Source: Bifidobacterium breve (lineage in GTDB: Bacteria > Actinomycetota > Actinomycetes > Nanopelagicales > Nanopelagicaceae). From it: 64,000 nucleotides of DNA. Under the pieces are notes generated by a model. It was not told the DNA's origin and searched no databases. It saw nothing but the letters and a program-made list of their open reading frames with translations. The stretch covers positions 1 to 64,000 of the forward strand of contig CAMCVO010000005.1 in NCBI GenBank assembly GCA_945881945.1. The letters run 5' to 3'. This document shows positions 10,937-45,897 of this stretch, piece after piece. Both the position numbers and the translations under genes were made by a program. Each line of letters starts with the position of its first letter. The stretch's first letter is position 1.

Positions 10937-11830
10937 ATGAGCGACCTCATTCAATACCTATTCAATGGACTTGTGGTTGGTTCAATATTTGCAATCGCAG
11001 CTGTTGGAATTTCACTTCTTTATAGTGTGCTTAGATTGGTTAACTTTGCAGCTGGTGATTTTCTTACCTTAGGCGCATTTATAACCTACTTTTTGAGTGT
11101 AACTTTAGAATTAAATTTTTTCTTCTCAATAGTTGTTTCGATGTTGGCTGGAATGGGAGTTAGTTGGTTTTTAGAGCTTGTGCTCTGGAGAAATTTACGA
11201 AGAAACAAAGCCGGTACATTGGCACTATTCCTAGTAGCAACAGGCGTTGCTTTAATGCTACGTCCAATAATTCAGTTTCTATTTGGAACAGAAACACGAA
11301 AGTTCAATGTTGATATATTTAAAACATATGATTTTTTTGGCGCAAGAATAGCTCACACCCAATTACTTGTGCTGATTTTTGCCTCGGCTTCAATTCTGAC
11401 TATTGCTCTATTTATTTCAAAGGCAAGAATAGGTAAGGACATGAGAGCATACGCAAACAACCCAGGACTTGCCTCAGTTTCAGGAATTAATGTAGATCGC
11501 GTAGTGCTAGCTACCTGGTTAATTTCAGGAGCCCTTGGCTCACTAGCAGGTGTATTTCAAGGACTTGTACAAGGTCAATTTAATAATGCAATGGGTGAGA
11601 GCCTACTGCTCTCATTTTTTGCAGCGGTAGTGCTAGGAACTATCGGTGATGCTTATGGGGCATTAGTGGGTGGGATGCTGCTTGGATTATTTATGGAGCT
11701 TTCGCAGTTAAGTATTTTCTTTGGTGGCGTTCCAAGTAATTACAAACCAGTTGTGGCATTTGCAACATTGGTGTTAGTGCTGCTCTTCAAGCCCGAAGGC
11801 TTATTCGGGTATCGAGCGAGAAAGGTCTAA
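10937..11830 (+). CDS. livH: Liv-type ABC permease LivH (system 3)
   Basis: Membrane subunit of the third importer, 297 residues. The N-terminus FNGLVVGSIFAIAAVGISL and NFAAGDFLTLGA are typical LivH; VVLGTIGDAYGALVGG is the C-terminal signature. The central segment has a stretch of residues between membrane spans (RKFNVDIFKTYDFFGA) seen in LivH-like proteins of urea/amide or amino-acid systems. It is first in an operon with livM, livG and livF, separated by 3, 0 and 0 nt. Confidence 0.9.
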   Translation: MSDLIQYLFNGLVVGSIFAIAAVGISLLYSVLRLVNFAAGDFLTLGAFITYFLSVTLELNFFFSIVVSMLAGMGVSWFLELVLWRNLRRNKAGTLALFLVATGVALMLRPIIQFLFGTETRKFNVDIFKTYDFFGARIAHTQLLVLIFASASILTIALFISKARIGKDMRAYANNPGLASVSGINVDRVVLATWLISGALGSLAGVFQGLVQGQFNNAMGESLLLSFFAAVVLGTIGDAYGALVGGMLLGLFMELSQLSIFFGGVPSNYKPVVAFATLVLVLLFKPEGLFGYRARKV

Positions 11831-11833
11831 CTC

Positions 11834-12814
11834 ATGCAAGCATTTGTGCAGCCAGGTTTTTGGGTATTTGTATTAGCACTTGCTGGTATATATGGAATTT
11901 TTGCATTAGGACTTCAAATTCAATACGGCGTTGGCGGTATTATGAATTTTGGTCATGTAGGAATGATGGCTGTTTCTGGTTACTCAATTGCCGTGCTCGT
12001 AATCAAATATCAATGGAGCTTTTGGTGGGCAGCTTTTTTTGGAGTTGTCCTAGCAGCATTTCTAGGAGCACTTCTCGGGTTAACAACTCTTCGCTTGAGT
12101 GGTGATTACTTTGCAATTGCCAGCATTGCATTTGCAGAAATAACTAGATACTGGATTCTCAATACTGACAGCGTCACCGGTGGTACGCAAGGCACTCTTG
12201 CCATTCCAAGTCCTTCAGGTTTTGGTGGATACACAGATCAACCCGATAAAATTTTAACCTGGATATCTGACCTGCTCTACCCGATAGTTGGCGATGAGGC
12301 ATCGCGGGATATGGCGATGATTTTTATTGTTTGGCCATTTTTATTCCTACTCATCTTGATCTCATCAAGACTGCAACAAACCTCCTGGGCCAGAGTGCTG
12401 CGCGCAACTCGAGAAGATGATGATGTTCCTCGATCATTGGGCAAAAATGTATTTCGTTTTCGATTGCAAACATTAATAATTGGCTCAGTTTTTGGAGGGA
12501 TTGCTGGCGTATTTTGGGCGCTGCAATTTGCTCTACTAGCACCTGAAGACTTCCTACGTATTGTAACTTTTTATGGCTGGATGATCTTAATTCTTGCTGG
12601 TGCAACTAGAGTAAAAGGATTAATTATTGCATCGATATTTTTTGGATTTCTTTATGGGTCAACGAGATTTTTGGAGTTCTGGCCACTATCCCTTCTATCC
12701 TCGCCAGAGCGTGCTTATTTGAGAGTATTCCTAATTGGACTTGTGATTGTTTTATTGATGGTCAAACGACCACAGGGCCTATTTGGAAAGCGGCAAGAAA
12801 TGGTTCTGGAGTAA
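11834..12814 (+). CDS. livM: Liv-type ABC permease LivM (system 3)
   Basis: Membrane subunit, 326 residues. IYGIFALGLQIQYGVGGIMNF and TLRLSGDYFAIASIAFAEI are LivM signatures, and the EAA-like loop is RATREDDDVPRSLG. The loop between spans is longer than usual, containing GYTDQPDKILTWISD. The final ~20 residues are basic. The stop codon directly abuts the livG start. Confidence 0.9.
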   Translation: MQAFVQPGFWVFVLALAGIYGIFALGLQIQYGVGGIMNFGHVGMMAVSGYSIAVLVIKYQWSFWWAAFFGVVLAAFLGALLGLTTLRLSGDYFAIASIAFAEITRYWILNTDSVTGGTQGTLAIPSPSGFGGYTDQPDKILTWISDLLYPIVGDEASRDMAMIFIVWPFLFLLILISSRLQQTSWARVLRATREDDDVPRSLGKNVFRFRLQTLIIGSVFGGIAGVFWALQFALLAPEDFLRIVTFYGWMILILAGATRVKGLIIASIFFGFLYGSTRFLEFWPLSLLSSPERAYLRVFLIGLVIVLLMVKRPQGLFGKRQEMVLE

Positions 12815-13642
12815 ATGATGAATCAATCAGCTAAAACTTCAAGCGGTAATTCAAATTCCTCTAACTTGGATTCAGTAACACTTGATGTTAAAGATATCTC
12901 GGTCAGTTTTGGTGGCGTCAAGCCCGTCCAAAATGTGAGTTTTTCAATTAAGGAGAACTCCTTTACATCTGTTATAGGGCCAAACGGAGCGGGTAAAACT
13001 TCACTTTTCAACTTAATTAGCGGAATCAATAAGGTGAGCTCTGGCGAGATTATTTTTCGTGGAGAGGCAATTGAGTCCATCCATGCCCATAAAATTGCTC
13101 AAAAAGGATTGATCAGAACCTTTCAAGGAGCAAAGATTATTAAGCGACTGACCGTTGCAGAAAACTTAATGATGGCGGTAAAAGATAATCCAGGAGACAA
13201 TCTCTCCGGCTTTCTAAAGCCAAAGAAACGAAAAGCTTTTGAATTGTTAGCTAGGGCTGAAGCCATGCGAAGACTAGATCAGGTAGGGCTGACTAAATTT
13301 GCCGATGAGTACGCTGGAATTCTCTCTGGCGGTCAACGTAAATTACTTGATCTATCACGGGCCCTAATGGCGAAGCCAAGTTTATTGCTTTTGGATGAAC
13401 CTTTTGCTGGGGTTAACCCGACCTTGGTGGAAAAACTCTTAACTGTTTTAGCTGAACTTAGAAAAGAACAATCCATGACATTTTTATTAATAGAACATGA
13501 CTTAGAGACGGTAATGAATATTTCAGATCGCGTAATTGTTATGGCTGATGGAAAAATTATTGCCGATGGTCTGCCAAATTCAATATATGAGAATGAATTG
13601 GTAATTGATGCATATCTTGGATCTCGAAGAAAGGATGCATAA
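12815..13642 (+). CDS. livG: ABC transporter ATP-binding protein LivG (system 3)
   Basis: ATPase of importer 3, 275 residues. It has a Ser/Asn-rich N-terminal extension of ~20 residues before the ABC fold starts at LDVKDISVSFGG. Walker A GPNGAGKT, IRTFQGAKIIKRLTVAEN, signature LSGGQRKLLD, Walker B LLLDEPFAG and IEHD are intact. The tandem ATG ATG at 12815 leaves the exact start slightly open. Confidence 0.92.
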   Translation: MMNQSAKTSSGNSNSSNLDSVTLDVKDISVSFGGVKPVQNVSFSIKENSFTSVIGPNGAGKTSLFNLISGINKVSSGEIIFRGEAIESIHAHKIAQKGLIRTFQGAKIIKRLTVAENLMMAVKDNPGDNLSGFLKPKKRKAFELLARAEAMRRLDQVGLTKFADEYAGILSGGQRKLLDLSRALMAKPSLLLLDEPFAGVNPTLVEKLLTVLAELRKEQSMTFLLIEHDLETVMNISDRVIVMADGKIIADGLPNSIYENELVIDAYLGSRRKDA

Positions 13643-14386
13643 ATGACTAAAAATGATTCCAGCCAACCTTTGTTCAATATTGAGAATTTACATGGTGGCT
13701 ATGGTGATATACAAATTTTGAATGGCGTGACTATCAAGGTGCCGAATAAAACTATTGTCACAATTGTGGGACCAAATGGTGCTGGCAAATCTACGATTCT
13801 CAAGGCGATATACGGAATCGCTGATGTCACATCTGGTTCAGTCACATTAAATAAAGATGGTGCTGTTACAGATGTTTTGGCAACAAAACCTCACAATTTA
13901 TCCAGAATTGGAGTTGGCTATGTGCCGCAGATTGACAATATTTTTCCAGCATTAAGCATTGATGAAAATCTTGAGGTTGGCTTTGTTAACTTTGCCAATA
14001 CAAATTTAGAGCAAATGCGTGATGACATTTATGTCCGGTATCCGGATTTAAAAAGAAGATCCAAAGATCGAGCTGGCACTCTTTCTGGAGGCCAACGACA
14101 GATGCTTGCAATGGCAAGAGCTTTGATGTCTTCACCCAGCATTTTGTTACTCGATGAGCCATCAGCTGGGTTAGCACCTGCGCTGGTGGATCAGTTATTT
14201 GATGAACTTGTTAAGATTAATCAGGTCGGGGTTACCATCTTGATGGTTGAGCAAAATGCAAGACGCGCACTGGGGATTTCAGATTATGGATATGTATTAG
14301 ATATGGGTCGGAATCGACACGAAGGAATCGGAACAAGCCTGGTAAATGACCCAGAGATTGTTGGAATATATCTGGGCAAGAAGTGA
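13643..14386 (+). CDS. livF: ABC transporter ATP-binding protein LivF (system 3)
   Basis: Last gene of the HMGF block, 247 residues. Walker A GPNGAGKS, signature LSGGQRQM, Walker B LLLDEPSAG and VEQN mark it as LivF. A short insertion (LNKDGAVTDVLATKPH) lengthens the segment after Walker A. It is followed by 193 nt containing a poly-G tract and then by two binding-protein genes. Confidence 0.92.
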   Translation: MTKNDSSQPLFNIENLHGGYGDIQILNGVTIKVPNKTIVTIVGPNGAGKSTILKAIYGIADVTSGSVTLNKDGAVTDVLATKPHNLSRIGVGYVPQIDNIFPALSIDENLEVGFVNFANTNLEQMRDDIYVRYPDLKRRSKDRAGTLSGGQRQMLAMARALMSSPSILLLDEPSAGLAPALVDQLFDELVKINQVGVTILMVEQNARRALGISDYGYVLDMGRNRHEGIGTSLVNDPEIVGIYLGKK

Positions 14387-14454
14387 TTATTACTTTTATG
14401 TTACAAATCTCAACCACCTGTATCTAAGCCCTGATAAGTTTTGGTTTTAGATCC

Positions 14455-14464
14455 GGGGGGGGGG
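14455..14464 (+). repeat. Run of ten G upstream of a binding-protein gene
   Basis: The sequence ATCC is followed by exactly ten G and then CGTGC, 115 nt before the ATG at 14580. In a low-G+C, compact sequence a run of this length is unusual and is a candidate for slipped-strand length variation. The rest of the 193-nt gap holds a strong AGGAGGAG ribosome-binding site for the next gene but no obvious terminator for livF. Confidence 0.85.
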
Positions 14465-14579
14465 CGTGCTGAGCCAGATTTTCCCTTAACACTCTTTCTA
14501 TTTAGTAAATCTAGTAATAGCCTTAAAGGGCTGAACAAAACTCTCAGCTCGTAGGGCTGGGTCAACTACTAGGAGGAGC

Positions 14580-15827
14580 ATGAAAATCAAATTAGTATTT
14601 ATTGCTACAGCACTGGCATCAACACTTGTGCTGGGCTCTGTGCCCGCGCAAGCTGCGGCCATTGATATGAAGATTGGCACAATCCATCCATTAACTGGAG
14701 GAAATGCAGATTATGGAATTGGCTTAACTTCAGCCGCCGAATGGGCTGCAGAATCAGTCACAAAGGCTATGAAATCAGCACGGGTAGCAGGATCCTGCAA
14801 GATAACAGCATCTGAAGATGATCAAGCAACTCCAGCGCTTGCGGTTGAGGCTGCCACCAAATTGGTTAAGAGCAATAAAGTAAATGCAATTGTTGGCCCA
14901 CTAACATCAGGCTCAACACTTGGCGCTGCCCAATCTGTAACGGTGCCAAACAATATTGTGATGATTGCAACCGCAGCATCAAGCCCAACCATTACAAAAT
15001 TTGCTGATAAAGATCTTTTGTTTAGAACCTATCCTTCAGATGCATTTCAAGGAAAGGTGATCGTTGCCGCTGTTCAAAAAGCTTATGGTAAAGGGGTAAC
15101 GCTAAGCATTGGCGCACGAAATGACGCTTTTGGCACAGCATTAGCTAACGTAGTAACAAATGAATGGGTCAAAGGTGGAGGCGATATTGGGCGAAAGGTT
15201 CTATGGAATCCAGAAAATGCGACCTTTGATTCAGAAGCTAAACTCCTTACCGAAGGCTCGCCAGATGTCTGGGTAATTGTTGATTTTCCAGATACTTTTG
15301 CAAAGGTAGGACCAGCACTGGTTCGAACCGGCAAGTGGGATCCAAAGAAAACCTTCTTCACTGAGGCCATGAATAACGAAGCAGTTATTCAAACAATTGG
15401 TGTCTCTGTAATGGCTGGTGCAAGAGGAACTGCTGCAAAATCAATTGGTATTAGTGCTGATAAGTGGAAAGCAGATCGCAAAGCCGCAAAGCCAAATACA
15501 AAAGAAACTTTTGTTGACGCTTCAGCTTACGATGCCACAGTACTTCTATGTCTTGCAGCTATTCATGGAAAAAGCACAAAGAGCTCTGCCTTGATCAAGA
15601 GTTTGCGTGCTGTTTCAGGATCACAGGGTGGAACTGTAATTCCTTGGACAAAACTTACTGATGCGGTAAAAGCCGCTGCAGCTGGTAAGAAAATCACTTA
15701 CCAAGGTGCTTGGACAACTGCAAAATTTGATGCAGCTGGAGATTCATCCGGTGCACTATTTAAGGTGTTCAGCATAGATACTGCAGGAAAAATCACTTCA
15801 AATGATGCGGACGATGTTCGCTTCTAA
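14580..15827 (+). CDS. Liv-type substrate-binding protein, secreted copy A (system 3)
   Basis: Extracellular receptor, 415 residues. The signal peptide is a classical one ending VPAQA-A, with no lipobox Cys, unlike its neighbour. The mature part begins IDMKIGTIHPLTGGNADYG, a PBP1 start; SEDDQATPALAVEAATKLV, VGPLTSGSTLGAAQ and TAASSPTI follow. An ideal AGGAGGAGC precedes the ATG. It is a close paralogue of the next gene. The absence of an anchor would make it a soluble protein in a monoderm cell unless it is held by its permease, which is odd. Confidence 0.9.
   Translation: MKIKLVFIATALASTLVLGSVPAQAAAIDMKIGTIHPLTGGNADYGIGLTSAAEWAAESVTKAMKSARVAGSCKITASEDDQATPALAVEAATKLVKSNKVNAIVGPLTSGSTLGAAQSVTVPNNIVMIATAASSPTITKFADKDLLFRTYPSDAFQGKVIVAAVQKAYGKGVTLSIGARNDAFGTALANVVTNEWVKGGGDIGRKVLWNPENATFDSEAKLLTEGSPDVWVIVDFPDTFAKVGPALVRTGKWDPKKTFFTEAMNNEAVIQTIGVSVMAGARGTAAKSIGISADKWKADRKAAKPNTKETFVDASAYDATVLLCLAAIHGKSTKSSALIKSLRAVSGSQGGTVIPWTKLTDAVKAAAAGKKITYQGAWTTAKFDAAGDSSGALFKVFSIDTAGKITSNDADDVRF
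15261..15358 (+). repeat. 98-nt block identical to 16810-16907
   Basis: Reading the two paralogous binding-protein genes side by side, this block matches 16810-16907 base for base, while flanking segments differ at many silent sites. It is consistent with gene conversion between the duplicates. Confidence 0.8.
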
Positions 15828-15874
15828 AAAATAATTTCAGGTCGATCTAAGTAGATCACTTGAAAGTTTCAGTT

Positions 15875-15916
15875 AAGAAATCTTGGCCCTTTACTTTAAA
15901 GGGCCAAGATTTCTTT
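15875..15916 (+). terminator. Rho-independent terminator after binding protein A
   Basis: AAGAAATCTTGGCCCTTTA and its near-exact complement form a stem of about 19 bp with a tiny loop, followed by T-rich sequence. The same element, with only the loop and one base changed, occurs after binding protein B at 17424-17465. A preceding GATCTAAGTAGATC inverted repeat is also duplicated. Confidence 0.9.
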
Positions 15917-16113
15917 CTTTATATTAATAGAGTCCCTTGCTAAAGCTCTAAATTTCTATGATTAGTTTGGGTATGCAAAGGCTAGAATCCATCCTTGGTG
16001 GGTTATCTATTCACTACAAAAGGCCTATCTTGTAAGTGGCACATGGGTTAAAGTTAGTGGGAGCACATTCAACTTTCTTGGACGTAGATGCCAAGATAAC
16101 CACAAGGAGAGAT

Positions 16114-17376
16114 ATGACAAAAAGGAATAAATGGATTTTGCCCAGTTTAATAGTGGCAGTTTCCTCATTGGTAGTAACTGGATGTTCTGATTCATCATCA
16201 AGTGCTGGAGTTAATTTAAAGATTGGCACAATCCACCCACTAACTGGAGGCAACGCCGATTATGGAATTGGTTTAACTACTGCAGCAGAGTTTGCTGCCG
16301 ATCAAATTAATGCTGCTATGGCAGAGGCAAATGTTGCAGGTTCTTGTGAAATAACAGCATCTGAAGATGATCAAGCAACCCCAGCACTTGCAGTTGAAGC
16401 TGCCACTAAGCTGGTAAAGAGTAATCAGGTTAACGCAATTGTTGGTCCACTGACTTCAGGATCAACACTTGGTGCTGCCCAATCTGTCACGGTGCCAAAC
16501 AATATCGTGATGATTGCAACCGCAGCTTCTAGTCCTGAGATAACAACATTTGCTGACAAAGACCTACTGTTCAGAACTTATCCTTCAGATGCATTCCAAG
16601 GAAAAGTAATTGTTGCAGCTGTGCAAAAAATCTATGGCAGTACTGCAAAATTAAATGTTGGAGCTCGTAACGATGCATTTGGTACTGCTTTAGCAAATGT
16701 TATTGAGACTGAATGGAAAAATGGTGGTGGAGTTATTGGCAGTAAAGTTCTGTGGAACCCAGAGAACGCCACTTTTGATTCAGAGGCTAAGCAACTAGCT
16801 GATGGTTCTCCAGATGTCTGGGTAATTGTTGATTTTCCAGATACTTTTGCAAAGGTAGGACCAGCACTGGTTCGAACCGGCAAGTGGGATCCAAAGAAAA
16901 CCTTCTTTACTGAGGCCATGTATGACGAAGCAGTGATTAAAACCATTGGCGTAAAGGTGATGGCAGGTGCAAGAGGTACTGCTGCGAAATCAATCGGAGT
17001 TGACGCTGATAAGTGGAAAGCAGATCGCAAAGCCGCAAAGCCAGATACAAAGGAAACTTTCGTTGACGCTTCAGCTTACGATGCCACTGTACTTCTATGC
17101 CTTGCAGCAATTCACGGTAAAAGTACAGAAAGCTCAGCACTTACGAAAAGTCTTAGGGCAGTTTCAGGAACTGAAGGTGGAACTGAAATACCTTGGACAA
17201 GTTTAGTAGATGCAGTGAAAGCAGCCGCAGCTGGTGACAACTTCACTTACCAAGGTGCTTGGACAACTGCAAAATTTGATGCAGCTGGTGACTCAAGTGG
17301 CGCTTTGTTTAGAGTCTACAACGTAGGAGCTGATGGAAAACTAAGCTCAAATGATGCAGAGGATGTGCGCTTCTAA
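16114..17376 (+). CDS. Liv-type substrate-binding lipoprotein, copy B (system 3)
   Basis: Receptor of 420 residues, closely similar to the upstream gene throughout the mature domain (same IGTIHPLTGGNADYGIGL start and ending ...DDVRF/EDVRF). Here the signal peptide is lipoprotein-type with VVTGCSDSSSS, giving a membrane anchor. I chose ATG at 16114 because AAGGAGAG lies just upstream; an in-frame earlier ATG at 16036 would bury the signal peptide. The two copies may differ in ligand or only in anchoring. Confidence 0.9.
   Translation: MTKRNKWILPSLIVAVSSLVVTGCSDSSSSAGVNLKIGTIHPLTGGNADYGIGLTTAAEFAADQINAAMAEANVAGSCEITASEDDQATPALAVEAATKLVKSNQVNAIVGPLTSGSTLGAAQSVTVPNNIVMIATAASSPEITTFADKDLLFRTYPSDAFQGKVIVAAVQKIYGSTAKLNVGARNDAFGTALANVIETEWKNGGGVIGSKVLWNPENATFDSEAKQLADGSPDVWVIVDFPDTFAKVGPALVRTGKWDPKKTFFTEAMYDEAVIKTIGVKVMAGARGTAAKSIGVDADKWKADRKAAKPDTKETFVDASAYDATVLLCLAAIHGKSTESSALTKSLRAVSGTEGGTEIPWTSLVDAVKAAAAGDNFTYQGAWTTAKFDAAGDSSGALFRVYNVGADGKLSSNDAEDVRF
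16810..16907 (+). repeat. 98-nt block identical to 15261-15358
   Basis: Second member of the identical block shared by the two binding-protein genes, within the segment encoding PDVWVIVDFPDTF and onward. Confidence 0.8.
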
Positions 17377-20331: not shown

Positions 20332-21597
20332 ATGGAGCGCTCATATGCATTAGAACTTGATCGGCTCGACCCACTAAATCAATATAAAAAACTATTTTAT
20401 ATTGACGATAGTTCTGTTTGCTACTTGGATGGCAACTCCCTAGGCAGATTGCCAATAGAAACTATTCAAGCAGTAGAAGATTTGTTAAAGAATGAATGGG
20501 GCAAGAAAATCGTTGGTGGGTGGACGGATTGGATTGATAAAGCGCAAAGCATCGGAGATTTAGTTGGCAGGTCATCACTTGGCGCTGCTCCTGGTCAAAC
20601 ACTTGCGCTTGATACAAATACAATAAATCTTTATCAATTGGCATGGGCTGCAGTTAAATCAAATCCAAGTCGTAAAAAAATCCTTATTGATAGAGCTAAT
20701 TTCCCTAGTGATCGTTATGCAATGGAGGGAATTGCTAATGACTTGGGCATGGAATTGGTTTACATTGAGAACGAGGATTTGCGAGAGTCTGAGAATGAGA
20801 TAATTTCAAATGAGTTGTTGAGTAAATACTTAGACAAAGATGTAGCTTTAGTGACCTTACAGATCATTCAGTATAGATCTGGTGGTTTGAACGATTATGC
20901 AAGTATTGAAAAAATGGTAAGAGATAATGGATCCCTAATGCTTTGGGATTGTTCTCACGCTATAGGTTCAGTGAATCTACAATTTGACAAGCATAAAATT
21001 GGCTTAGCGGTGGGCTGCACTTACAAATACGGCAATTCTGGACCTGGAGCCCCCGGCTGGTTGTATGTATCTACAGAGCTTCAACAGAAATTGAATGTAC
21101 CGATACGTGGTTGGTTTGGCGTGAAAAACCAATTTGCAATGGGACCAGTTTTTGAGCGCTCAGCCAGCATTCGTGGCTTTCAAATTTCGACGCCGCCAAT
21201 AATCGGTTTAAAAGCTGTAGAAGTTGGATTTAAGATGATCGAGGCCGCCACTATGGAGTTGATTAATGAGAAATGTTTAAAGGGTACTGATTTGATGATA
21301 GCTCTTTACGATGAATTGTTGAAACCTTTGGGCTTTAAACTCGCAACACCAAGAGATTCTACTAAAAGATGTGGGCACATAATTATCACTCATCAAGATG
21401 GCGCACAAATAGCAGTAGCTTTACGACAACTAAAAAACGTTTTCCCTGATTATCGGGAACCAAATGGAATCAGATTTTCGTTTTCACCGTTGCCTACCTC
21501 GTTTGTTGAAGTTTATGATGGCTTTAAACGACTTAAAGAGCTGGCCGAATCAGGGGATTATAAAACAGTCACAGTCCAAAGCTCCAAAGTAACTTGA
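20332..21597 (+). CDS. kynU: Kynureninase
   Basis: PLP enzyme that hydrolyses L-kynurenine to anthranilate plus L-alanine. The 421-residue protein has the family signatures LDGNSLG (32-38), LWDCSHAIGSV (Asp206 to the pyridine N) and CTYKYGNSGPGAPG with the PLP lysine at 232, plus the ERSASIRGFQISTPPI region near 280-300 matching the kynureninase substrate loop. Length is normal. Its product feeds the 2-aminobenzoate-CoA ligase encoded at 51421-53013, and tryptophan dioxygenase is at 42374. It starts directly after a -10 box (leaderless). Confidence 0.88.
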   Translation: MERSYALELDRLDPLNQYKKLFYIDDSSVCYLDGNSLGRLPIETIQAVEDLLKNEWGKKIVGGWTDWIDKAQSIGDLVGRSSLGAAPGQTLALDTNTINLYQLAWAAVKSNPSRKKILIDRANFPSDRYAMEGIANDLGMELVYIENEDLRESENEIISNELLSKYLDKDVALVTLQIIQYRSGGLNDYASIEKMVRDNGSLMLWDCSHAIGSVNLQFDKHKIGLAVGCTYKYGNSGPGAPGWLYVSTELQQKLNVPIRGWFGVKNQFAMGPVFERSASIRGFQISTPPIIGLKAVEVGFKMIEAATMELINEKCLKGTDLMIALYDELLKPLGFKLATPRDSTKRCGHIIITHQDGAQIAVALRQLKNVFPDYREPNGIRFSFSPLPTSFVEVYDGFKRLKELAESGDYKTVTVQSSKVT

Positions 21598-21692: not shown

Positions 21693-21998
21693 ATGGAGTT
21701 ATTTGATTTGCGGGTAACTGTTGAAAGCATAGGCGGCAGATCTGTTTGTGGACTAAAACCTGGTGACTACTTTGAGCTTACCAACAGTGCCGAATTAAGA
21801 ATTCCAGATGGAAAGCATTTTTGCATGTATGCGATAGCTTCAGTTCTGCCTCTACTTCCAGCAAAACAACGTCAAATGTCAGCCGATGATTGGTTGGAAC
21901 AAGACTCTCTGGTTGCATGCCCAGACCCAGAGGAGCAAATGGTAATGAAGATTGAAAGAATTGGCCGCGTTAAGTTAAACGCAAGTGATTTAACTTAA
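21693..21998 (+). CDS. Small TIGR04076-like protein
   Basis: A 101-residue protein with the pattern VTVESIGGRSVCGLKPGDYFEL, CMYAIASVLPLLPAKQR and VACPDPEEQMVMKIERIG. This Cys...GDxF...CPDP...IER arrangement matches my memory of the uncharacterised TIGR04076 family. Three conserved Cys could bind a metal or be redox active. It lies just after kynureninase and ends by sharing TTAA with the convergent aldo/keto reductase. Function unknown; recurrence beside catabolic flavoenzymes would hint at an accessory role. Confidence 0.6.
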   Translation: MELFDLRVTVESIGGRSVCGLKPGDYFELTNSAELRIPDGKHFCMYAIASVLPLLPAKQRQMSADDWLEQDSLVACPDPEEQMVMKIERIGRVKLNASDLT

Positions 21999-23038
21999 TT
22001 ATTGTTGGTATGCATAATTGTTCTATGCTTGCTGTCATATCTTTCTAAGTAATAAACCGGTCCTTTAGGCCCTTTTGCTAACGATGTAATATTTTTCAAG
22101 TTGTGTAATTCTTGTTCGGTAAATTTCATACCTGGAATTCGAAGGTTTGAATTTAAATGTTCACGATTTCTGGCGCCGACAATAACAGCTGTTACGGCTG
22201 GTTGATGAAGAATATAGGCAGAAGCAATAGTGCCAATGTCAGTTTCATGCTTCTTAGCGATTTCATGTAATACAGCGAGTAATTTTTGAAAAAGATCCCA
22301 GCCGCCAAATTCTTCAATAATTAATCTATATTTGACACCTGATCTAGTTTCAAATGCTTTAGGTTCTCCAACTCCAAGGTACTTTTCGGAGATAAATCCA
22401 CCCGCAACAGTGCCGTAACAAAGAATACTAATATCATTTTCCAAGCAAAATTCAGTCATTTCATTCTCAGCTCTATTATCAATAAGCGAGTACTGAAGTT
22501 GAATGCTTGCTGGCTTGAATCCTGCGCTTAACATTTCACTGAGCCGATCAACATCAAAGTTTGTAACACCTACATGTCGAATTTTTCCTTCATTTTTTAA
22601 AATGAATAATTCTTCCATTGCTGCTAGATAATGTTTGGCCTCATATTTCCACCAATGGAATTGCACTAAATCTACATAATCTGTCCCTAATCTCTTTAGG
22701 GATCGATTTACAATTCTTCTGACATCCTCTCTTTCAAAGTCATCTAAGTGAAGTTCGTTTGGCACATATTTTGTGTGTAGCTGAACTTTACTTCTGGACT
22801 CCTCACCATATTTATCGCCTAGCTTTAGAATTGCTTTACCAATTAACTCTTCTACGCCCGTGTAGATATCACCAAAATCCAAAGTAGAAATACCTGCTTC
22901 TACAAATTCATTTATATCTGCAATTGCTTGGTCATCTTCAATTTTTTGATTAAGTGAGTGTCCTGAACTTAATTGCCAACCCCCCTTAATTACTGGGGAT
23001 ATTTGATATGAACCCTGGAGATTTACCTTTTCCATCAC
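21995..23038 (-). CDS. Aldo/keto reductase
   Basis: TIM-barrel NAD(P)H oxidoreductase, 347 residues. Catalytic Asp and Tyr in STLDFGDIYTGVEE, Lys in LHTKYVPNE and His in LVQFHWWKYE are visible; the cofactor end is AVIVGARNREHL. Its start overlaps the stop of the AKR-RidA gene by 4 nt, and the two AKR parts are clearly paralogous (DFGD/DMAD, YGTVAGGFISEKYLG/YGTLCGGFISKKWLG). It is the last gene of the cupin-aminotransferase-AKR operon. Substrate unknown. Confidence 0.8.
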   Translation of the reverse strand: MMEKVNLQGSYQISPVIKGGWQLSSGHSLNQKIEDDQAIADINEFVEAGISTLDFGDIYTGVEELIGKAILKLGDKYGEESRSKVQLHTKYVPNELHLDDFEREDVRRIVNRSLKRLGTDYVDLVQFHWWKYEAKHYLAAMEELFILKNEGKIRHVGVTNFDVDRLSEMLSAGFKPASIQLQYSLIDNRAENEMTEFCLENDISILCYGTVAGGFISEKYLGVGEPKAFETRSGVKYRLIIEEFGGWDLFQKLLAVLHEIAKKHETDIGTIASAYILHQPAVTAVIVGARNREHLNSNLRIPGMKFTEQELHNLKNITSLAKGPKGPVYYLERYDSKHRTIMHTNNN

Positions 23039-24492
23039 TGAATTTCAGCCTCTGCTTCAATTTCAACAAGGTATTCATCTCCCACCAAGTTTGCAAAAAA
23101 TGTGGTGTTTGCTGGTTTTATATCTGCGAATCTTTCACCGTGAGCTAGCAACGCCCCTTTCCAGCCTTTACTGTTTCGCACAAATACTCTGGTGCGTACC
23201 ACATCTGATAATTTAGAGCCTAAAGATTCCAAAGATGCTTCAATTTTATCAATTATAAAATGCGCTTGTGCGATCGGATCATCTCTTCCAACAACGAAAT
23301 CACCATGAGTTGCAGTAGTTCCTGAGGTTAAAACGCGGTTACCGATCCTAATTGCTCGTGAGTAGCCAGCCAGGGATTCCCAGGGAGTACCAGAGTTAAT
23401 TTGTTGCACCTGACCATTTTGTATTGGGTCATAGACTGGTGGGAATTCCTCTAAATGATGGCTTAAATCACCTGAAGCAGTTAAGTAAGGCGGCTTGCGA
23501 TACTCATCGCCACAGTCACCAGGTATTGGATTTAGCAAATCAATTGCAGCTTGGATTCTCTCAATTTGTTTCTTCTTTAAAGAAAATGTAAATAAAGAAG
23601 TTGTATCTTGAAGATGAGAATTTTCACCCAACCTGGCGCCAATTATTACGCCCCCAACTGCTTTCTGACTCAGTTGGAACTTACTGGCAATAGTTGCGAT
23701 CGAACGCTCAGTTTCTTGGCTGATTTGATCTAATACTCTGAGTAAATTCTGGAACTTATCCCAACCTCCTGCTGCATCAATAAATCTTTTATATTTCATT
23801 AACGACCAATTACCTAGGTTTTTTTGTTCAGGCTCTGGCTTACCTAACCATTTTTTGGAAATAAAACCACCACATAGGGTCCCATAAGCTAAAATTGCAA
23901 TTGAGTTCTCTGCACAATAATCAGCCATTTTCCCTGAACCTCTACGGTCAACTAATGAATAAGAAATCTGATTTGAAACAATTTCAATCCCAGTAGTTTT
24001 GGCAATTCTTAGATGGGCTGTGTCAAAATTGGTGGTGCCTAGTGCACCTATTAGTCCCTCTTCTTTTAGTTCTTGAAGATAAATTAGAGTATCTAGCCAA
24101 AATGGATTTGAAAAACTCCAAGCGTGATACTGAAGTAAGTCCACTTTTTCACTTTGCAGTCGAGACAAGCGTTCTTGAATGGCATTTCGAACTTGTTCTC
24201 GGGTAACTGGTCCTGGCTTTGGGACCCATTTGGTCATTAATTTTGCTTGGTTTCCATCAGGCTCAATTTTTTTAAATGTTCCAGCAATTATTTCAGCTGA
24301 TCCGTAATGATCTGCCATGTCAAATGTGTATAGTCCAGATTGAACATAAGGTGCCATTAATTTTGCGGATGTGACAGGATTTAAAGTTTTACCATCTTTT
24401 TCCATGTCAGCAATCTGCCAAAGTCCAGTAATAGCCCTTGAAATAACCAAACCTTTAGCAAGCTTGTAAACCTCCACCGCATCCTTTGCCAT
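23035..24492 (-). CDS. Aldo/keto reductase fused to a RidA-like domain
   Basis: Two-domain protein, 485 residues. Residues 1-335 form an AKR (TFDMADHYGSAE, MTKWVPK, LQYHAW catalytic residues; GVIIGARLGENSHL cofactor site). Residues ~365-485 form a YjgF/RidA domain (RVLTSGTTATHG, VVRTRVFVRN, YLVEIEAEAEIQ). At the position of the arginine that binds the substrate carboxylate in active RidA deaminases this domain has Asn-Thr (PANTTF), so it may not deaminate imines. A reductase tethered to a RidA domain suggests handling of a reactive imine/enamine or keto intermediate. It lies 6 nt after the class V aminotransferase, and no frameshift is seen at the junction. Confidence 0.82.
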   Translation of the reverse strand: MAKDAVEVYKLAKGLVISRAITGLWQIADMEKDGKTLNPVTSAKLMAPYVQSGLYTFDMADHYGSAEIIAGTFKKIEPDGNQAKLMTKWVPKPGPVTREQVRNAIQERLSRLQSEKVDLLQYHAWSFSNPFWLDTLIYLQELKEEGLIGALGTTNFDTAHLRIAKTTGIEIVSNQISYSLVDRRGSGKMADYCAENSIAILAYGTLCGGFISKKWLGKPEPEQKNLGNWSLMKYKRFIDAAGGWDKFQNLLRVLDQISQETERSIATIASKFQLSQKAVGGVIIGARLGENSHLQDTTSLFTFSLKKKQIERIQAAIDLLNPIPGDCGDEYRKPPYLTASGDLSHHLEEFPPVYDPIQNGQVQQINSGTPWESLAGYSRAIRIGNRVLTSGTTATHGDFVVGRDDPIAQAHFIIDKIEASLESLGSKLSDVVRTRVFVRNSKGWKGALLAHGERFADIKPANTTFFANLVGDEYLVEIEAEAEIQ

Positions 24493-25677: not shown

Positions 25678-26463
25678 TTAATTTGACTCAGAGTAGCCAG
25701 GAGCTGGGCTTCCATCTGGATAGTATGCAGCAGATGGGGAGCCTTCGGGCCGGAAAACCCCCAATACCCAAAGATCTTCTGTTGCTGTATTAGTCAGGGA
25801 ATGAAGCAGCCTTGGCACCACTGCAAAAGCTGACCCTGCAGTTAGTGATTGACTTTTACCTCCTGAAATAAATTCTCCACCACCTCTTAAAATATAACAA
25901 ATCTCGTCATACAAATGGTAATGGCTGGGAGCACCTGAAGGTGGAATAAAGCCAACAAACATTGTCGCATCAGCTGATCCATTGCTTGCATCAAATATAA
26001 CTTCAAACTGTCGATCCGAAGTGGCTGTTGATTTTTGGTTGCCACCCTGAGTTACAACACGAGTAAAGTTTGAAGTGTTATGTGTTTGCCTGCGCCCATA
26101 AGGTCCAGAAGAATTTGGCACATAAACTTCGATTGCGATTAAATTATCGGCATAGGTCCAAATAAAAGTTTCTCCACTTTTTATTTGAATTGCACTCCCA
26201 GGCTCAACTTTTATTGAGTTGTCAACACCAGTAACGCTCTCGCCAATAACTTCTAAACTTGCCGTGCCGGAGCGAACAAATATGTAGGTCGTGCCAGCAA
26301 GTGAGCCTTTGGGGGATGAATTGCCAGTCATGTGAATTTCAGTTGCCGTCATAGCCTCGGCGTAGGGCTGGGAGTCAATTAGGTTAAAACATTGGCCTTG
26401 ACCGCGAATAACAACATCGTTTGGCGATAAGGTAGTGGCATTAAAGACTTTGCCTGGCTCCAT
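25678..26463 (-). CDS. Bicupin protein
   Basis: Two cupin barrels in about 261 residues. The second (residues ~160-250) carries the metal-binding pattern in GAPSHYHLYDEICYILRGGGEF with further His in PRLLHSL; the first lacks a clear His set (AGTTYIFVRSGTASLEVIGE). This resembles ureidoglycine aminohydrolase-like and other double-cupin proteins. I chose ATG at 26463: an earlier in-frame start at 26586 would overlap the divergent OsmC gene and add an unrelated hydrophobic tail. It leads the minus-strand operon. Substrate unknown. Confidence 0.72.
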   Translation of the reverse strand: MEPGKVFNATTLSPNDVVIRGQGQCFNLIDSQPYAEAMTATEIHMTGNSSPKGSLAGTTYIFVRSGTASLEVIGESVTGVDNSIKVEPGSAIQIKSGETFIWTYADNLIAIEVYVPNSSGPYGRRQTHNTSNFTRVVTQGGNQKSTATSDRQFEVIFDASNGSADATMFVGFIPPSGAPSHYHLYDEICYILRGGGEFISGGKSQSLTAGSAFAVVPRLLHSLTNTATEDLWVLGVFRPEGSPSAAYYPDGSPAPGYSESN

Positions 26464-26483
26464 GAAAGGAAGATATCGTATAA

Positions 26484-26912
26484 ATGAAAATTTATAAATA
26501 TGCAAGTGCAGTTTGGAATGGACCAGTACCAACTGGAACAGGCTCCATGAGATTAGGAAAAAATGGCGGATCACTTGCCTATTCACTGAAATCGCGAGTT
26601 GAAGATACGGATATGACCAACCCTGAGGAATTAGTTGGGGCAGCTCTTGCTGGATGTTTTTCTATGCATTTAACTAGCTTGATTGAGGATGCTGGTAAAA
26701 AACCTGGGGTAATTGAAGCCAGTGCCAAGGTAACACTTGAGCAACGCGCTGATGGATTTTGGATAAGCGAAATCCAGTTAATTGCGCGAGGCTCTGGGCA
26801 AGAATTAAGTAATGAAGAGTTTGTCGCATTTGCCGAAAAAGCCAAGGCGACCTGCCCGGTTTCAAAGTTGTATTCAAGCGCATTGATTACCCTAGATGCT
26901 GCGCTGGCTTAA
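26484..26912 (+). CDS. OsmC-family thiol peroxidase
   Basis: A 142-residue OsmC protein that reduces organic hydroperoxides. NPEELVGAALAGCFSM carries the peroxidatic Cys and a downstream KATCPVSKLYS the second Cys, both in expected spacing. SGPVPTGTGSMRLG-like residues and SLAYSLKSR form the N-terminal strand. Its ATG is only 20 nt from the divergent bicupin start, so the two promoters must overlap or lie inside the genes. Confidence 0.88.
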   Translation: MKIYKYASAVWNGPVPTGTGSMRLGKNGGSLAYSLKSRVEDTDMTNPEELVGAALAGCFSMHLTSLIEDAGKKPGVIEASAKVTLEQRADGFWISEIQLIARGSGQELSNEEFVAFAEKAKATCPVSKLYSSALITLDAALA

Positions 26913-34268: not shown

Positions 34269-35042
34269 TTACTTTGAAATTAATGCCAAAACTCTAGTTG
34301 GTGAACCAGATCCACCAACAATTTTTAATGGAGCTGCAATAACAATTGCGCCAGTTGTTGGTAACTTATCAAGGTTGCGAAGCTGAGTTAGGCCGTACTT
34401 ATTGTTTCCAAGTAGGTAGTTGTGGCAAGGAAACGGAACATCCATTCCAAATGCACCACCAGCATCTATACCAACCGTCTCAACACCCAAACCAAGAATG
34501 TCACGCTTTGTCGCTAGAAACTCTGCAGTTGATGGTGGCAATCCAGGTGTGTGCGGCCCTTTGTCATCAGCATTTGCAAATGCTTTAGGGTCATCACCAA
34601 ATTTAGACCAGCCAGTGCGAAACAGCACCCAAGCGCCAGCAGGAATTTGTCCATTAGCTTTTTCCCAAGCCTCGATATGAGATACCTCCAGTAGAAAATC
34701 TGGATTTGCAGCTGATTCTTTTACAAAATCTAGAACTACTGCTGGTCCAATCAAACGTTTAGCTGGGATTGAAGCGACATCGTCACCATCTTTACCGGTA
34801 ATCCAATGGTTAGGTGCGTCTAAATGGGTACCAGTGTGTTCACCGGTATGAAAATTATTCCAATACCAGGCAGGTCCTCGGTCGTCGTACTTTGAGATCT
34901 CCTCCAATTTAAATGATGCTGTTTGTCCAAATGGTTCTGGAAGCACCAATATTGGGGTATTTGAATGTAGTGGTGCAGTTAAATCAAGTACTTGCACTGC
35001 CCCTGATGCTAAATCTGCCGCCAAATCTTTTAAGCCAGCCAT
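34269..35042 (-). CDS. Cyclase-family hydrolase (kynurenine formamidase or isatin hydrolase)
   Basis: Metal-dependent cyclase-family protein, 257 residues. HTGEHTGTHLDAPNHW is the metal-binding signature; LDLTAPLHSNTPIL begins the fold. Bacterial KynB is usually about 210 residues, whereas isatin hydrolases are about 260, so the length favours the second. Either activity leads towards anthranilate: N-formylkynurenine to kynurenine, or isatin to isatinate. ATG follows AAGGAG. The kynureninase, tryptophan dioxygenase and indolepyruvate oxidoreductase genes of the window fit both readings. Confidence 0.78.
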   Translation of the reverse strand: MAGLKDLAADLASGAVQVLDLTAPLHSNTPILVLPEPFGQTASFKLEEISKYDDRGPAWYWNNFHTGEHTGTHLDAPNHWITGKDGDDVASIPAKRLIGPAVVLDFVKESAANPDFLLEVSHIEAWEKANGQIPAGAWVLFRTGWSKFGDDPKAFANADDKGPHTPGLPPSTAEFLATKRDILGLGVETVGIDAGGAFGMDVPFPCHNYLLGNNKYGLTQLRNLDKLPTTGAIVIAAPLKIVGGSGSPTRVLALISK

Positions 35043-37438: not shown

Positions 37439-39023
37439 TTCGAAAACACCACAAGATCGTCCAATTACTTTAGCCCTACTTGCAATGGGTGGTGAAGGCG
37501 GTGGTGTTTTAGCTGACTGGGCCATTGATATGGCCGAACGTAATGGTTTCTTTGCCCAAACCACTTCAGTTCCTGGTGTAGCCCAGCGAACTGGAACAAC
37601 TGTTTACTACCTTGAGTTTTACCCCGATGATGGCATCAGTAGACTTGGATCTCACGAACCAATTTTGAGCACTATGGCAATGCCTGGTGAAGTAGATATT
37701 GTGGTTGCATCTGAATTAATGGAGGCAGGAAGAGCGATATCTCGAGGGTTTGTAACATCAGATGTCACAACATTAATAACATCGACTAACCGTGTTTATT
37801 CTATGACTGAACGGACAGCTTTAGGGGATGGTCGCGTGGATTCGGAGGCAATCCTTAAGTCTGCAAAGGATTCTTCTAAAAAACTTATTGCTGCAGATTT
37901 TGCCAAAGTAGCAGAGGATTCATCTAGTGTTATTTCAGCAGCCCTGTTTGGTGCTTTAGCGGGCAGCAATGCACTGCCATTTGGCAAGGAACATTTCATC
38001 GCAGCTATTGAGCGTGGCGGAGTAGGTGTTAAATCTTCCATAGCAGCTTTTGAAAAAAGCTTTGAAATTGCTAGTGCATTAATTAAATCAGAAGGCAAAA
38101 CGCAAAGTAGTGCAGTATCAGTACAGATTGGCTCCAAACCGGTCAACCCTGGTGAAATTTCACAAGAAGAACAATCCAAGATAATTAACGATCCAACCTC
38201 AGTTGTTGGATATAAGTTAACTAACTTAGCCGCGCAGGTAAAAAGTGAAGTACCAGAATCAGCCCGCGTTATGGTAATCAATGGAATTAAAAGAACAGCT
38301 GACTACCAAAGCACTAAATATGCCGAACGGTATCTATCTAGAGTTTTAGAAATTGCAAAGATAGAAGCTCAAGATGGAAATGGTTCAGGTAGGCTCCTGA
38401 ATGAAACGGCTCGATATACAGCGCTATGGATGACTTATGAAGACACTATCCGTGTAGCTGATTTGAAAACTAGGCGTAGTAGATTTCAGAGAGTAAATGC
38501 AGAAGCACGAGTTAACAAAGAACAGCTCATGGAGGTCCGCGAGTACCTCCATCCAATGTCGGAGGAGATTGCCGATACTCTGCCAACACCAATTGGTAAA
38601 TGGATTCTGCGAACAAAGGTAGTTACAAGAAGCATTGAGAAAATTACGGCTAATGGCATGATTCTTAATACAGCATCAATCGGTGGTTATTTGTTGCTGT
38701 ATACACTTGCTCGATTAAAGCCGATACGCCCTAGATCCCTTCGTTTTAACTTGGAGCAGGAGCGTATAGATTCCTGGCTAGGAAGGATCAAAACATTAGC
38801 AAGTACAAACTATGACCTAGCTTGCGAAGTTGCTGAATGTGCAAATGTAATAAAGGGTTATGGAGATACTCATCGCAATGGTTGGCGAAATTTCACCTTC
38901 ATTATGGATGAGTTGGATCGAATCGCGGCCAATACTGATGCAGCGGTAAGAGTTAAAGACCTGCGAGTGGCAGCACTTGCCGATGAGGATGGTATTAAAT
39001 TAAGGGCGCTTTTAAGCCTTTAA
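37428..39023 (+). CDS. iorB: Indolepyruvate:ferredoxin oxidoreductase, beta subunit with C-terminal extension
   Basis: About 531 residues. The first ~200 match the gamma/beta domain of 2-oxoacid:acceptor oxidoreductases (ALLAMGGEGGGVLADW, VPGVAQRTGTTVYYLE), followed by a long helical C-terminal extension (~330 residues) as in the IorB form of aerobic bacteria. The start is unsure: in-frame TTG codons occur at 37386, 37407 and 37428; I chose the last because it gives the usual short lead before the first strand. All overlap iorA. The stop shares TTAA with the convergent monooxygenase. Confidence 0.82.
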   Translation: MKPNSKTPQDRPITLALLAMGGEGGGVLADWAIDMAERNGFFAQTTSVPGVAQRTGTTVYYLEFYPDDGISRLGSHEPILSTMAMPGEVDIVVASELMEAGRAISRGFVTSDVTTLITSTNRVYSMTERTALGDGRVDSEAILKSAKDSSKKLIAADFAKVAEDSSSVISAALFGALAGSNALPFGKEHFIAAIERGGVGVKSSIAAFEKSFEIASALIKSEGKTQSSAVSVQIGSKPVNPGEISQEEQSKIINDPTSVVGYKLTNLAAQVKSEVPESARVMVINGIKRTADYQSTKYAERYLSRVLEIAKIEAQDGNGSGRLLNETARYTALWMTYEDTIRVADLKTRRSRFQRVNAEARVNKEQLMEVREYLHPMSEEIADTLPTPIGKWILRTKVVTRSIEKITANGMILNTASIGGYLLLYTLARLKPIRPRSLRFNLEQERIDSWLGRIKTLASTNYDLACEVAECANVIKGYGDTHRNGWRNFTFIMDELDRIAANTDAAVRVKDLRVAALADEDGIKLRALLSL

Positions 39024-41416: not shown

Positions 41417-41523
41417 AAAGTAAATTAGCCCTTCCAAAGCTGCTTTTTGCGACATTGCATAAGACCTAGATGGATAAATAATAGTGGGGGCACAACTTTT
41501 TTACTAGCCTCCAGCAGGAGAGA

Positions 41524-42373: not shown

Positions 42374-43084
42374 ATGAGTTACGGACCGGATCAAATTCTT
42401 AACGGTGAAGGCAAAAGTGACTATGAAAGATATTTAAAGTTAAGCGAACTTTTAAATCTACAACCAGTTAAAGAAACATGGAAACATAGAGATGAGCTGC
42501 TATTTACAGTTGTTCATCAGACTTCGGAGCTTTGGCTCAAGCATGCAACAGCGGAAGCTGGCCAAGCGGCATCCTTGTTAGCGAATAATGAAATTCGACC
42601 GGCATTGCGCCTTTTTCCTAGAATATTACTGGCGATTAAGTACTGTCATGAATCTCTCGACATGCTTGAGCAAATGTCACCTTGGGATTATCAGCAAGTC
42701 CGCAGAGCATTAGGACATGGTTCTGGGTTTGATTCACCAGGCATGAACTCTATTCGTAAATCAATTCCACTGTTGGGCGTAGAGTTCAAGCGAATGCTTA
42801 CCTCTGAAGGTATTGATTTAGTGCAATTGTTTGTTCGCCATACAGAGTTTGAGGATCTCTACCTTTTAGCAGAAGCTCTCATTGAGTTAGATGAGCGTAT
42901 GTACCTGTGGCGCCATCGTCATTTTAAGGTAGTAGAAAGAAGTATTGGATTGAAAGTTTCAGGAACGCAGGGAACGCCAGTAGAGATTTTATCGCGACTT
43001 AACAATTTTACGTTTTTCCCAGAGCTATGGGATGCACGTACCGCTGTTACTAATTATGCAATTGCAGAAGAGGGCGAAAATTAA
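42374..43084 (+). CDS. kynA: Tryptophan 2,3-dioxygenase
   Basis: Haem enzyme that opens the indole ring to N-formylkynurenine. At 236 residues it is shorter than typical (~270-280), lacking part of the N-terminus, but key motifs remain: DELLFTVVHQTSELWLK (His48), RRALGHGSGFDSPG, LYLWRHRHFKVVERSIG with the haem-ligand His183 in the WRxxH motif, and SGTQGTPVEIL. GFDS replaces the usual GFQS and GTQGTP the usual GTGGSSG, so it may be a divergent subgroup. AGGTGG lies 9 nt before ATG. Ends by sharing TTAA with the next, convergent gene. Confidence 0.82.
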   Translation: MSYGPDQILNGEGKSDYERYLKLSELLNLQPVKETWKHRDELLFTVVHQTSELWLKHATAEAGQAASLLANNEIRPALRLFPRILLAIKYCHESLDMLEQMSPWDYQQVRRALGHGSGFDSPGMNSIRKSIPLLGVEFKRMLTSEGIDLVQLFVRHTEFEDLYLLAEALIELDERMYLWRHRHFKVVERSIGLKVSGTQGTPVEILSRLNNFTFFPELWDARTAVTNYAIAEEGEN

Positions 43085-45149: not shown

Positions 45150-45896
45150 ATGGGGGAGGCAGCACTAAGAATTCTTGTCACTGGAGCCAGTCGAGGAATT
45201 GGTCGTGAAATTGCGCAGCAACTACTGGACTCCGGGCATAACGTTGCGGTTACTGCAAGATCACAGGATGACTTAGAGGATTTAGTTACTGGTTATAGCA
45301 ACAGTATGGTAATTGTTGCTGACTCTACTCAACCAAAAAGTGCAGAAGAAGCTGTGAGTAAAGTTGTTAACCAGTGGAATGGCCTAGATGTTTTAATTAT
45401 TAATGCTGGAGATGGAAGCGCGGCTCCAATTGAGAAAACAACTGATGAAATTTGGGATAAATCAATTGCGATAAATCTGACAGCACCTTTTCATTACTTA
45501 AGGGCTGCAGTGCCCACCATGAAAAACGGAAAATTTGGAAGAGTGGTGGTAATTGCAAGTACAGCAGGTCTGGAGGGGGAGCCAAATGTCTCGGCATACA
45601 CAGCTGCTAAACATGGGGTAATTGGTTTGGTCAGATCTTCCGCCGCCGAACTGGCAAAGCATGGAATTACTGTTAATGCAGTTTGTCCTAGCTATGTCGA
45701 TACACCGATGACGCAACGCTCATTACAGGCTGCGGCACTACGCACAGGCAAAACCTTTGATGAGGTAAAGGCAGCACTGCTGTCCAAAATTCCAGGTGGT
45801 AGATTCTTGAGTGTGGATGAGGTAGCCAAAGCTGCAATTTCATTTATAGCCCTACCAGATCAAACAGGCCAGACTCAGATTGTTAAAGGAGATTGA
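45150..45896 (+). CDS. Short-chain dehydrogenase/reductase (FabG-like)
   Basis: SDR of 248 residues. ILVTGASRGIGREIAQ, TARSQ (NADP-type basic residue), INAGDGS, IASTAG and YTAAK are present, and VCPSYVDTPMT fits 3-hydroxyacyl-CoA/ACP dehydrogenases. ATG at 45150 has GGAG 6 nt upstream and is preferred over GTG at 45120. First gene of the operon SDR-RidA-two acyl-CoA synthetases-mutase, with 1-nt spacing to the next gene. It may interconvert keto and hydroxy acyl-CoA intermediates. Confidence 0.8.
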   Translation: MGEAALRILVTGASRGIGREIAQQLLDSGHNVAVTARSQDDLEDLVTGYSNSMVIVADSTQPKSAEEAVSKVVNQWNGLDVLIINAGDGSAAPIEKTTDEIWDKSIAINLTAPFHYLRAAVPTMKNGKFGRVVVIASTAGLEGEPNVSAYTAAKHGVIGLVRSSAAELAKHGITVNAVCPSYVDTPMTQRSLQAAALRTGKTFDEVKAALLSKIPGGRFLSVDEVAKAAISFIALPDQTGQTQIVKGD

Positions 45897-45897
45897 A

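What the first reader, a model, noticed from the sequence alone, without database searches (positions are those of the whole stretch)
23035..24492. Aldo/keto reductase fused to a RidA-like domain
The reading frame joins a full AKR to a full RidA fold with no sign of frameshift. RidA proteins are normally free-standing. The RidA part lacks the usual catalytic Arg, so it may bind rather than hydrolyse an imine or keto compound and pass it to the reductase.
Basis: seen in the sequence. Interest (0 to 1): 0.58.

Follow-up and report, generated by a model that had tools for sequence, protein, structure and literature searches.

The report
Reductase fused to a Rid domain
A bacterial gene joins a carbonyl-reducing enzyme to a small imine-handling domain; the joined protein is real, occurs in several unrelated bacterial phyla, and usually sits beside amino-acid transporters, so it probably carries out two linked steps in the breakdown of an amino-acid-like compound that is still unknown.

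Summary
The fusion is real and conserved. The 485-codon ORF 23035-24492 (-) holds a complete aldo/keto reductase (AKR; residues 22-317) and a complete Rid domain (373-483). Full-length homologues occur in 3 of 59 relative genomes, 17 plasmid records and the best 80 of 546 GTDB relatives, eight named phyla, so assembly error is excluded. Fused Rid domains form one clade. The junction (321-347) is the most conserved stretch: 91% identity, against 69% (AKR) and 76% (Rid). Neighbours point to amino acids: an APC permease lies directly upstream in 49 of 75 loci, and amino-acid-type ABC transporters adjoin it in 8 of 8 alphaproteobacterial regions viewed. Best reading: a two-step enzyme in which the Rid half releases a carbonyl from an amino-acid-derived enamine/imine and the AKR half reduces it, as RutC plus a reductase do. 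Substrate, direction and Rid activity remain unshown. I found no paper on this architecture in the library searched.

The parts
23035..24492 (-). AKR-Rid fusion gene, 485 codons, stop included
   Evidence: conserved full length in other genomes
23542..24429 (-). aldo/keto reductase domain (residues 22-317); tetrad D58, Y63, K88, H123
   Evidence: Pfam PF00248 1.1e-50; tetrad residues 56 of 56; fold match to AKRs, Z 27-32
23452..23532 (-). invariant junction (residues 321-347), the most conserved stretch of the protein
   Evidence: mean column identity 91% against 68.5% (AKR) and 75.5% (Rid) in 56 rows; model confidence falls to about 60 at 331-350 in the monomer
23044..23376 (-). Rid domain (residues 373-483), Rid6-like, Asn462 in place of RidA Arg105, Glu479 kept
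   Evidence: Pfam PF01042 3.3e-18; alignment; N462 56 of 56, E479 53 of 56 with 3 gaps; fold match to 3i7t, Z 18.9
21995..23038 (-). second aldo/keto reductase (AKR2), 4-base overlap with the fusion's end, 38% identical to the fused AKR, no Rid domain
   Evidence: directly downstream of the fusion in 13 of 17 actinobacterial loci
21693..21998 (+). TIGR04076 family protein, convergent with AKR2
   Evidence: next gene after AKR2, opposite strand, in 12 of 17 actinobacterial loci; beside AKR2 in alphaproteobacterial plasmid clusters
24499..25653 (-). PLP class V enzyme (SufS/kynureninase-like), 6 bases upstream of the fusion, same strand
   Evidence: directly upstream of the fusion in 10 of 17 actinobacterial loci
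25678..26586 (-). cupin-domain protein, same strand; true start probably near 26460
   Evidence: kept upstream of the PLP gene in several actinobacterial loci
10937..17376 (+). LIV-type amino acid ABC transporter: two permeases, two ATPases, two binding proteins; this transporter family adjoins the fusion cluster in relatives

Best explanation
The protein is a bifunctional enzyme for breaking down an amino-acid-like solute taken up by the linked transporters. Shown: one conserved polypeptide made of an AKR with a complete catalytic tetrad, a strongly constrained junction, and an Arg-less Rid6-like domain; repeated gene linkage to amino-acid transporters of several kinds. Inferred: the Rid half speeds the hydrolysis of an unstable enamine or imine to a carbonyl compound, and the AKR half reduces that carbonyl with NAD(P)H, so that neither reactive compound is released. 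The junction would line the reductase pocket or the interface between subunits and couple the two sites. In the window's lineage a PLP enzyme next door is a plausible source of the enamine or imine. The opposite order (the AKR oxidises and the Rid half then hydrolyses its product) remains open.
For: Complete domains. AKR tetrad invariant. Confident fold of the whole chain, pLDDT 89.9 and pTM 0.91, and of the Rid part alone, 93.6. Amino-acid linkage by different transporter families: APC permease directly upstream on the same strand in 49 of 75 loci, 42 of them Bacteroidota, median gap 6 bases; LIV-type ABC genes beside it in 7 of 8 alphaproteobacterial regions and a polar amino acid ABC transporter in the eighth; LIV-type labels in 10 of 17 actinobacterial loci; a polar amino acid ABC set directly upstream in G033. 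PLP enzyme directly upstream in 10 of 17 actinobacterial loci. One clade of fused Rid domains, support 100/100. Precedent: RutC makes a carbonyl compound from 3-aminoacrylate, and its assay couples this to NADPH oxidation by YdfG (passages in PMC8113886).
Against: No biochemical data. Arg105 is absent, and published tests found no deaminase activity in Arg-less Rid4-7 proteins (PMC8113886 passage). The PLP enzyme is not kept outside Actinomycetota in my set. Transporter linkage says little about the exact substrate. None of the cluster's enzymes (fusion, AKR2, PLP enzyme) and none of the transporter proteins scanned matched a specific characterised family above an NCBIfam cut-off; one permease passed only the generic domain model TIGR01726. 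The 80 loci are related by descent, so the 49 of 75 are not independent events.
Confidence: 0.42

Rival explanations
1. The Rid half is catalytically silent and acts as a trimer-forming scaffold or amino-acid sensor that organises or regulates the reductase.
For: RidA Arg replaced by Asn in 56 of 56; Rid4-7 reported inactive (PMC8113886 passage); Rid proteins typically assemble as trimers (PMC4433059 passage).
Against: The Rid domain is conserved more strongly (75.5%) than the AKR half (68.5%), with invariant N462, S390, R433, R435, H451 and R454; a bare scaffold would not need a fixed pocket.
Confidence: 0.27
2. The AKR runs as a dehydrogenase: it oxidises an amino alcohol or amine with NAD(P)+, and the Rid half hydrolyses the resulting imine or enamine, as Rid proteins help D-arginine dehydrogenase and 6-hydroxypseudooxynicotine dehydrogenase.
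For: Published pairing of Rid proteins with imine-forming dehydrogenases (title and abstract start of PMC5619798; passages in PMC7688666, and PMC8552603); catabolic gene setting.
Against: Those partners are not AKRs (recalled); the NCBIfam scores nearest the fused AKR are to carbonyl reductases, all far below cut-off.
Confidence: 0.2
3. Binding and hand-over: the Rid half captures an imine or keto compound without chemistry and delivers it to the reductase.
For: Loss of Arg; very conserved junction.
Against: No test available here separates it from the catalytic reading; I met no precedent for it in the passages I read.
Confidence: 0.1
4. Assembly or gene-calling artefact.
For: The window's genome is a draft of 25 contigs, 86% complete.
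Against: Same full-length fusion in many independent assemblies and in 17 plasmid records.
Confidence: 0.01

Closest known systems
Aldo/keto reductase superfamily (PF00248)
   Same: Complete domain, invariant tetrad, fold match Z 27-32 to solved AKRs
   Different: C-terminal extension through an invariant junction into a Rid domain; identity to the solved AKRs listed is only 16-25%
Rid/YjgF superfamily, Rid5/Rid6-like (solved relative Rv2704, 3i7t)
   Same: Complete domain; best fold match Z 18.9 over 116 residues, 37% identity; no RidA Arg, Glu kept, as described for Rid5/Rid6 (PMC4433059 passage)
   Different: Fused to an AKR; Asn fixed where free relatives vary (N in 2 of 20); below the curated cut-offs for RidA (TIGR00004) and RutC (TIGR03610)
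Rut pathway: RutC followed by a semialdehyde reductase (YdfG in the published assay)
   Same: A Rid protein makes a carbonyl compound that a nicotinamide-dependent reductase then reduces (PMC8113886 passages)
   Different: Separate proteins; RutC has its Arg and needs it; that YdfG is not an AKR is recalled, not from a call
Known fusions of Rid domains (2x, 3x, 4x Rid)
   Same: Rid domains in longer polypeptides (PMC4433059 passage)
   Different: Those are repeats of Rid with itself, not with an oxidoreductase

Membership tests
Aldo/keto reductase (PF00248) | Pfam gathering score and near-complete profile | tested here: met
   172.8 bits against 24; profile 4-290 of 291
Aldo/keto reductase (PF00248) | Catalytic tetrad Asp-Tyr-Lys-His (roles recalled from knowledge of the family) | tested here: met
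   D58, Y63, K88, H123 in 56 of 56 rows
Aldo/keto reductase (PF00248) | NAD(P)H-dependent carbonyl reduction | not testable with these tools
   needs an enzyme assay
Rid superfamily (PF01042) | Pfam gathering score, near-complete profile, Rid fold | tested here: met
   66.3 bits against 27.3, profile 7-120 of 121; fold matches to Rid structures
RidA subfamily (TIGR00004) | Curated cut-off 106.25 bits | tested here: not met
   31.3 bits
RidA subfamily (TIGR00004) | Catalytic Arg105 | tested here: not met
   Asn462 at that place, 56 of 56
RutC (TIGR03610) | Curated cut-off 169.1 bits and the active-site Arg | tested here: not met
   31.9 bits; Arg absent
Rid6 (or Rid5) subfamily | Glu kept, Arg variable, Tyr or Phe kept | tested here: met
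   E479 53 of 56 plus 3 gaps, N462, Y377 35 and F 21 of 56; criteria from PMC4433059 passage; this does not separate Rid5 from Rid6
Rid6 (or Rid5) subfamily | Assignment by the NCBI conserved-domain models | not tested
   those models are not among the libraries here

The most novel reading that the evidence does not exclude
An undescribed, widespread two-site enzyme of amino acid catabolism in which an Arg-less Rid domain is an active deaminase using another residue set (invariant Asn462, His451, Arg433/435/454) and passes its product through an invariant junction to a fused reductase. This would show that Arg-less Rid proteins are enzymes and would give a first route to their substrates.
Probability: 0.3. 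Interest if true: 0.66.

Novelty: new variant of a known kind. Interest (0 to 1): 0.5.

Why it matters
The Rid4-7 subfamilies are widespread but have no agreed function (PMC4433059 abstract passage). A natural, conserved fusion of such a domain to a reductase, with the same residue in place of the Arg in all 56 rows aligned and mostly beside amino-acid transporters, gives a concrete, testable partner reaction and could settle whether Arg-less Rid domains catalyse. It would also fill an annotation gap: in the eight plasmid regions read the gene is called only 'aldo/keto reductase'.

Tried and rejected
Assembly error was rejected. A split ancestor was looked for in 59 relative genomes and 295 further Actinomycetota genomes: apart from the window and G002, G023, G033, no listed match covers both domains. 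One row, G097, reached into the junction by coordinates, but on reading it was a free Rid gene overlapped by another frame. L018 (G044) and a few rows with a read-through stop had long match ranges at about 25% identity and were not followed up.

Substrate identification failed. Binding proteins match only leucine/isoleucine/valine-type proteins in general, the permease only broad APC models, and the PLP enzyme only cysteine desulfurase/kynureninase-like proteins. I considered kynurenine as substrate, because the window and L050 carry tryptophan dioxygenase near the cluster, but the label appears in no other locus; kept as a lead only. TIGR04076 has one paper in the library and no known function.

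Literature: searches for Rid/L-PSP together with aldo-keto reductase found no paper on this architecture; most subscription papers are not held. Of the papers cited I saw listings, abstracts or passages, never a whole text.

The full-length Foldseek and VIA searches are dominated by the AKR half, so the Rid half was folded and searched alone. I had no access to model coordinates, so I could not check contacts between junction and active sites. A recalled likeness of the junction's GDCGDEYR ending to plant AKRs was not tested.

Full report
Observation. The reading frame 23035-24492 on the minus strand is open over 485 codons from an ATG. Pfam finds a complete aldo/keto reductase domain (residues 22-317, 1.1e-50) and a complete Rid domain (residues 373-483, 3.3e-18). 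The window lies in a 1.1-Mb draft genome, 86% complete; its closest named relative locus is from a Candidatus Nanopelagicaceae MAG (L040, 80% identity).

The fusion is not an artefact. Full-length homologues occur in G002 and G023 (79% and 80% identity, 2 of the 24 other same-genus genomes) and in G033 (71%, 1 of the 12 other same-family genomes), but in none of the 23 same-class genomes and in none of 295 other Actinomycetota. Outside this lineage, 17 of 72,556 plasmid records hold a match covering at least 80% of the query, at 47-54% identity. A scan of GTDB contigs found 546 relatives; the best 80 all cover both domains. By phylum these are 46 Bacteroidota, 17 Actinomycetota, 6 Pseudomonadota, 3 Chloroflexota, 3 Gemmatimonadota, 2 Acidobacteriota, 1 Calditrichota, 1 Deinococcota and 1 unassigned. 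The distribution in Actinomycetota is patchy, which fits horizontal transfer (inference). In a tree of 56 fused and 21 free Rid domains, the fused ones form a single group with support 100/100, so one fusion event explains this sample; the tree has few columns and one very long branch.

Anatomy. In 56 aligned fusions (the window and 55 of the 80 loci) the AKR residues D58, Y63, K88 and H123 are invariant. The residue at the place of RidA Arg105 is Asn462 in 56 of 56; the placement comes from the alignment of KPANT with KPARS of S. aureus YabJ. Glu479 is kept in 53 of 56, with 3 gaps. In 20 free relatives the Arg position varies, Asn in 2 of 20. Also invariant in the fused Rid domain are S390, R433, R435, H451 and R454. 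The junction, residues 321-347, is the most conserved stretch (91% mean identity; AKR 68.5%, Rid 75.5%). AlphaFold2 gives a confident whole chain (pLDDT 89.9, pTM 0.91), but only about 60 at residues 331-350. An almost invariant stretch that is uncertain in the monomer suggests, without proving, that it is ordered by a ligand or a neighbouring subunit. The Rid part alone folds at pLDDT 93.6 and matches Rv2704 best (Z 18.9, 1.3 A over 116 residues, 37% identity). The AKR part matches many AKRs, with flagellar radial spoke protein 5 first (Z 31.6, rmsd 2.5 over 311 residues, tied with the next rows).

Gene neighbourhood. In the window the fusion is flanked on its own strand by a PLP class V enzyme 6 bases upstream and a second AKR overlapping its end by 4 bases; a TIGR04076 gene runs towards the second AKR. 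Of 17 actinobacterial loci, 13 have the second AKR directly downstream, 12 then have TIGR04076 on the other strand, and 10 have the PLP enzyme directly upstream; L056 also has the second AKR, while L041 and L052 end nearby. Of 8 alphaproteobacterial plasmid regions read (of 17), 7 hold the second AKR and a LIV-type ABC transporter; TIGR04076 is annotated in 6 of these and matched in a seventh whose gene is called hypothetical. The eighth, Antarctobacter, has a polar amino acid ABC transporter divergent from the fusion. In the other phyla the partner is an APC amino acid permease: directly upstream and on the same strand in 49 of 75 loci in which I could call the fusion ORF (5 of 80 failed), median gap 6 bases; 42 of these 49 are Bacteroidota, 4 Pseudomonadota, and one each Calditrichota, Chloroflexota and unassigned. 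In L057 a DUF885 protein and an S9 peptidase precede the permease; members of the same similarity cluster as that DUF885 protein precede it in Maribacter-type loci, though the two of those that I scanned did not themselves reach Pfam significance. The constant theme is uptake of amino acids or peptides.

Mechanism. I favour a two-step enzyme: enamine/imine hydrolysis by the Rid half, then carbonyl reduction by the AKR half. The nearest precedent is RutC, whose carbonyl product is reduced in a coupled assay with NADPH and YdfG (passages in PMC8113886). The weak point is the missing Arg: that paper says Arg-less Rid4-7 proteins had shown no deaminase activity. A counter-example may be the A. tumefaciens S33 nicotine Rid, annotated Rid6 (PMC7688666 passage) and later listed as a purified, characterised reactive imine deaminase (PMC8552603 passage); I could not read the primary paper nor check whether that protein lacks the Arg. 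The substrate is unknown.

Membership. It is an AKR by sequence and tetrad, and a Rid protein by sequence and fold. It is not RidA (31.3 bits against a cut-off of 106.25, no Arg) and not RutC (31.9 against 169.1). By its residues it fits the description of Rid5/Rid6; the conserved-domain models that separate these were not available.

Verdict. Four library searches found no report of this architecture; the library lacks most subscription journals.

Noticed in passing
window 20332-21597, 34269-35042, 39020-41455, 42374-43084, 48371-53040: Genes that fit a tryptophan-to-anthraniloyl-CoA breakdown island: kynureninase-like, putative cyclase (formamidase type by recall), fused FAD_binding_3 plus Oxidored_FMN protein (811 aa, 2-aminobenzoyl-CoA monooxygenase/reductase type by recall), tryptophan dioxygenase, two AMP-binding ligases, in a 1.1-Mb genome.
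   Followed up: partly
window 14580-17376: Two adjacent LIV-type binding proteins that look like near copies of each other over most of their length but differ at the N-terminus, the second with a lipoprotein-like start.
   Followed up: no
window 45880-46293: A separate free-standing Rid protein (PF01042) in the same window, on a very long branch from the fused Rid domain.
   Followed up: partly
L057 3572-8989: In a gammaproteobacterial MAG the permease before the fusion is preceded by a DUF885 protein and an S9 peptidase, hinting at peptide-derived substrates; genes of the same similarity cluster precede it in Maribacter-type loci.
   Followed up: partly
window 25678-26586: The cupin ORF as called overlaps the divergent OsmC gene 26484-26912 at its 5' end, so its real start is probably downstream, near 26460.
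   Followed up: no
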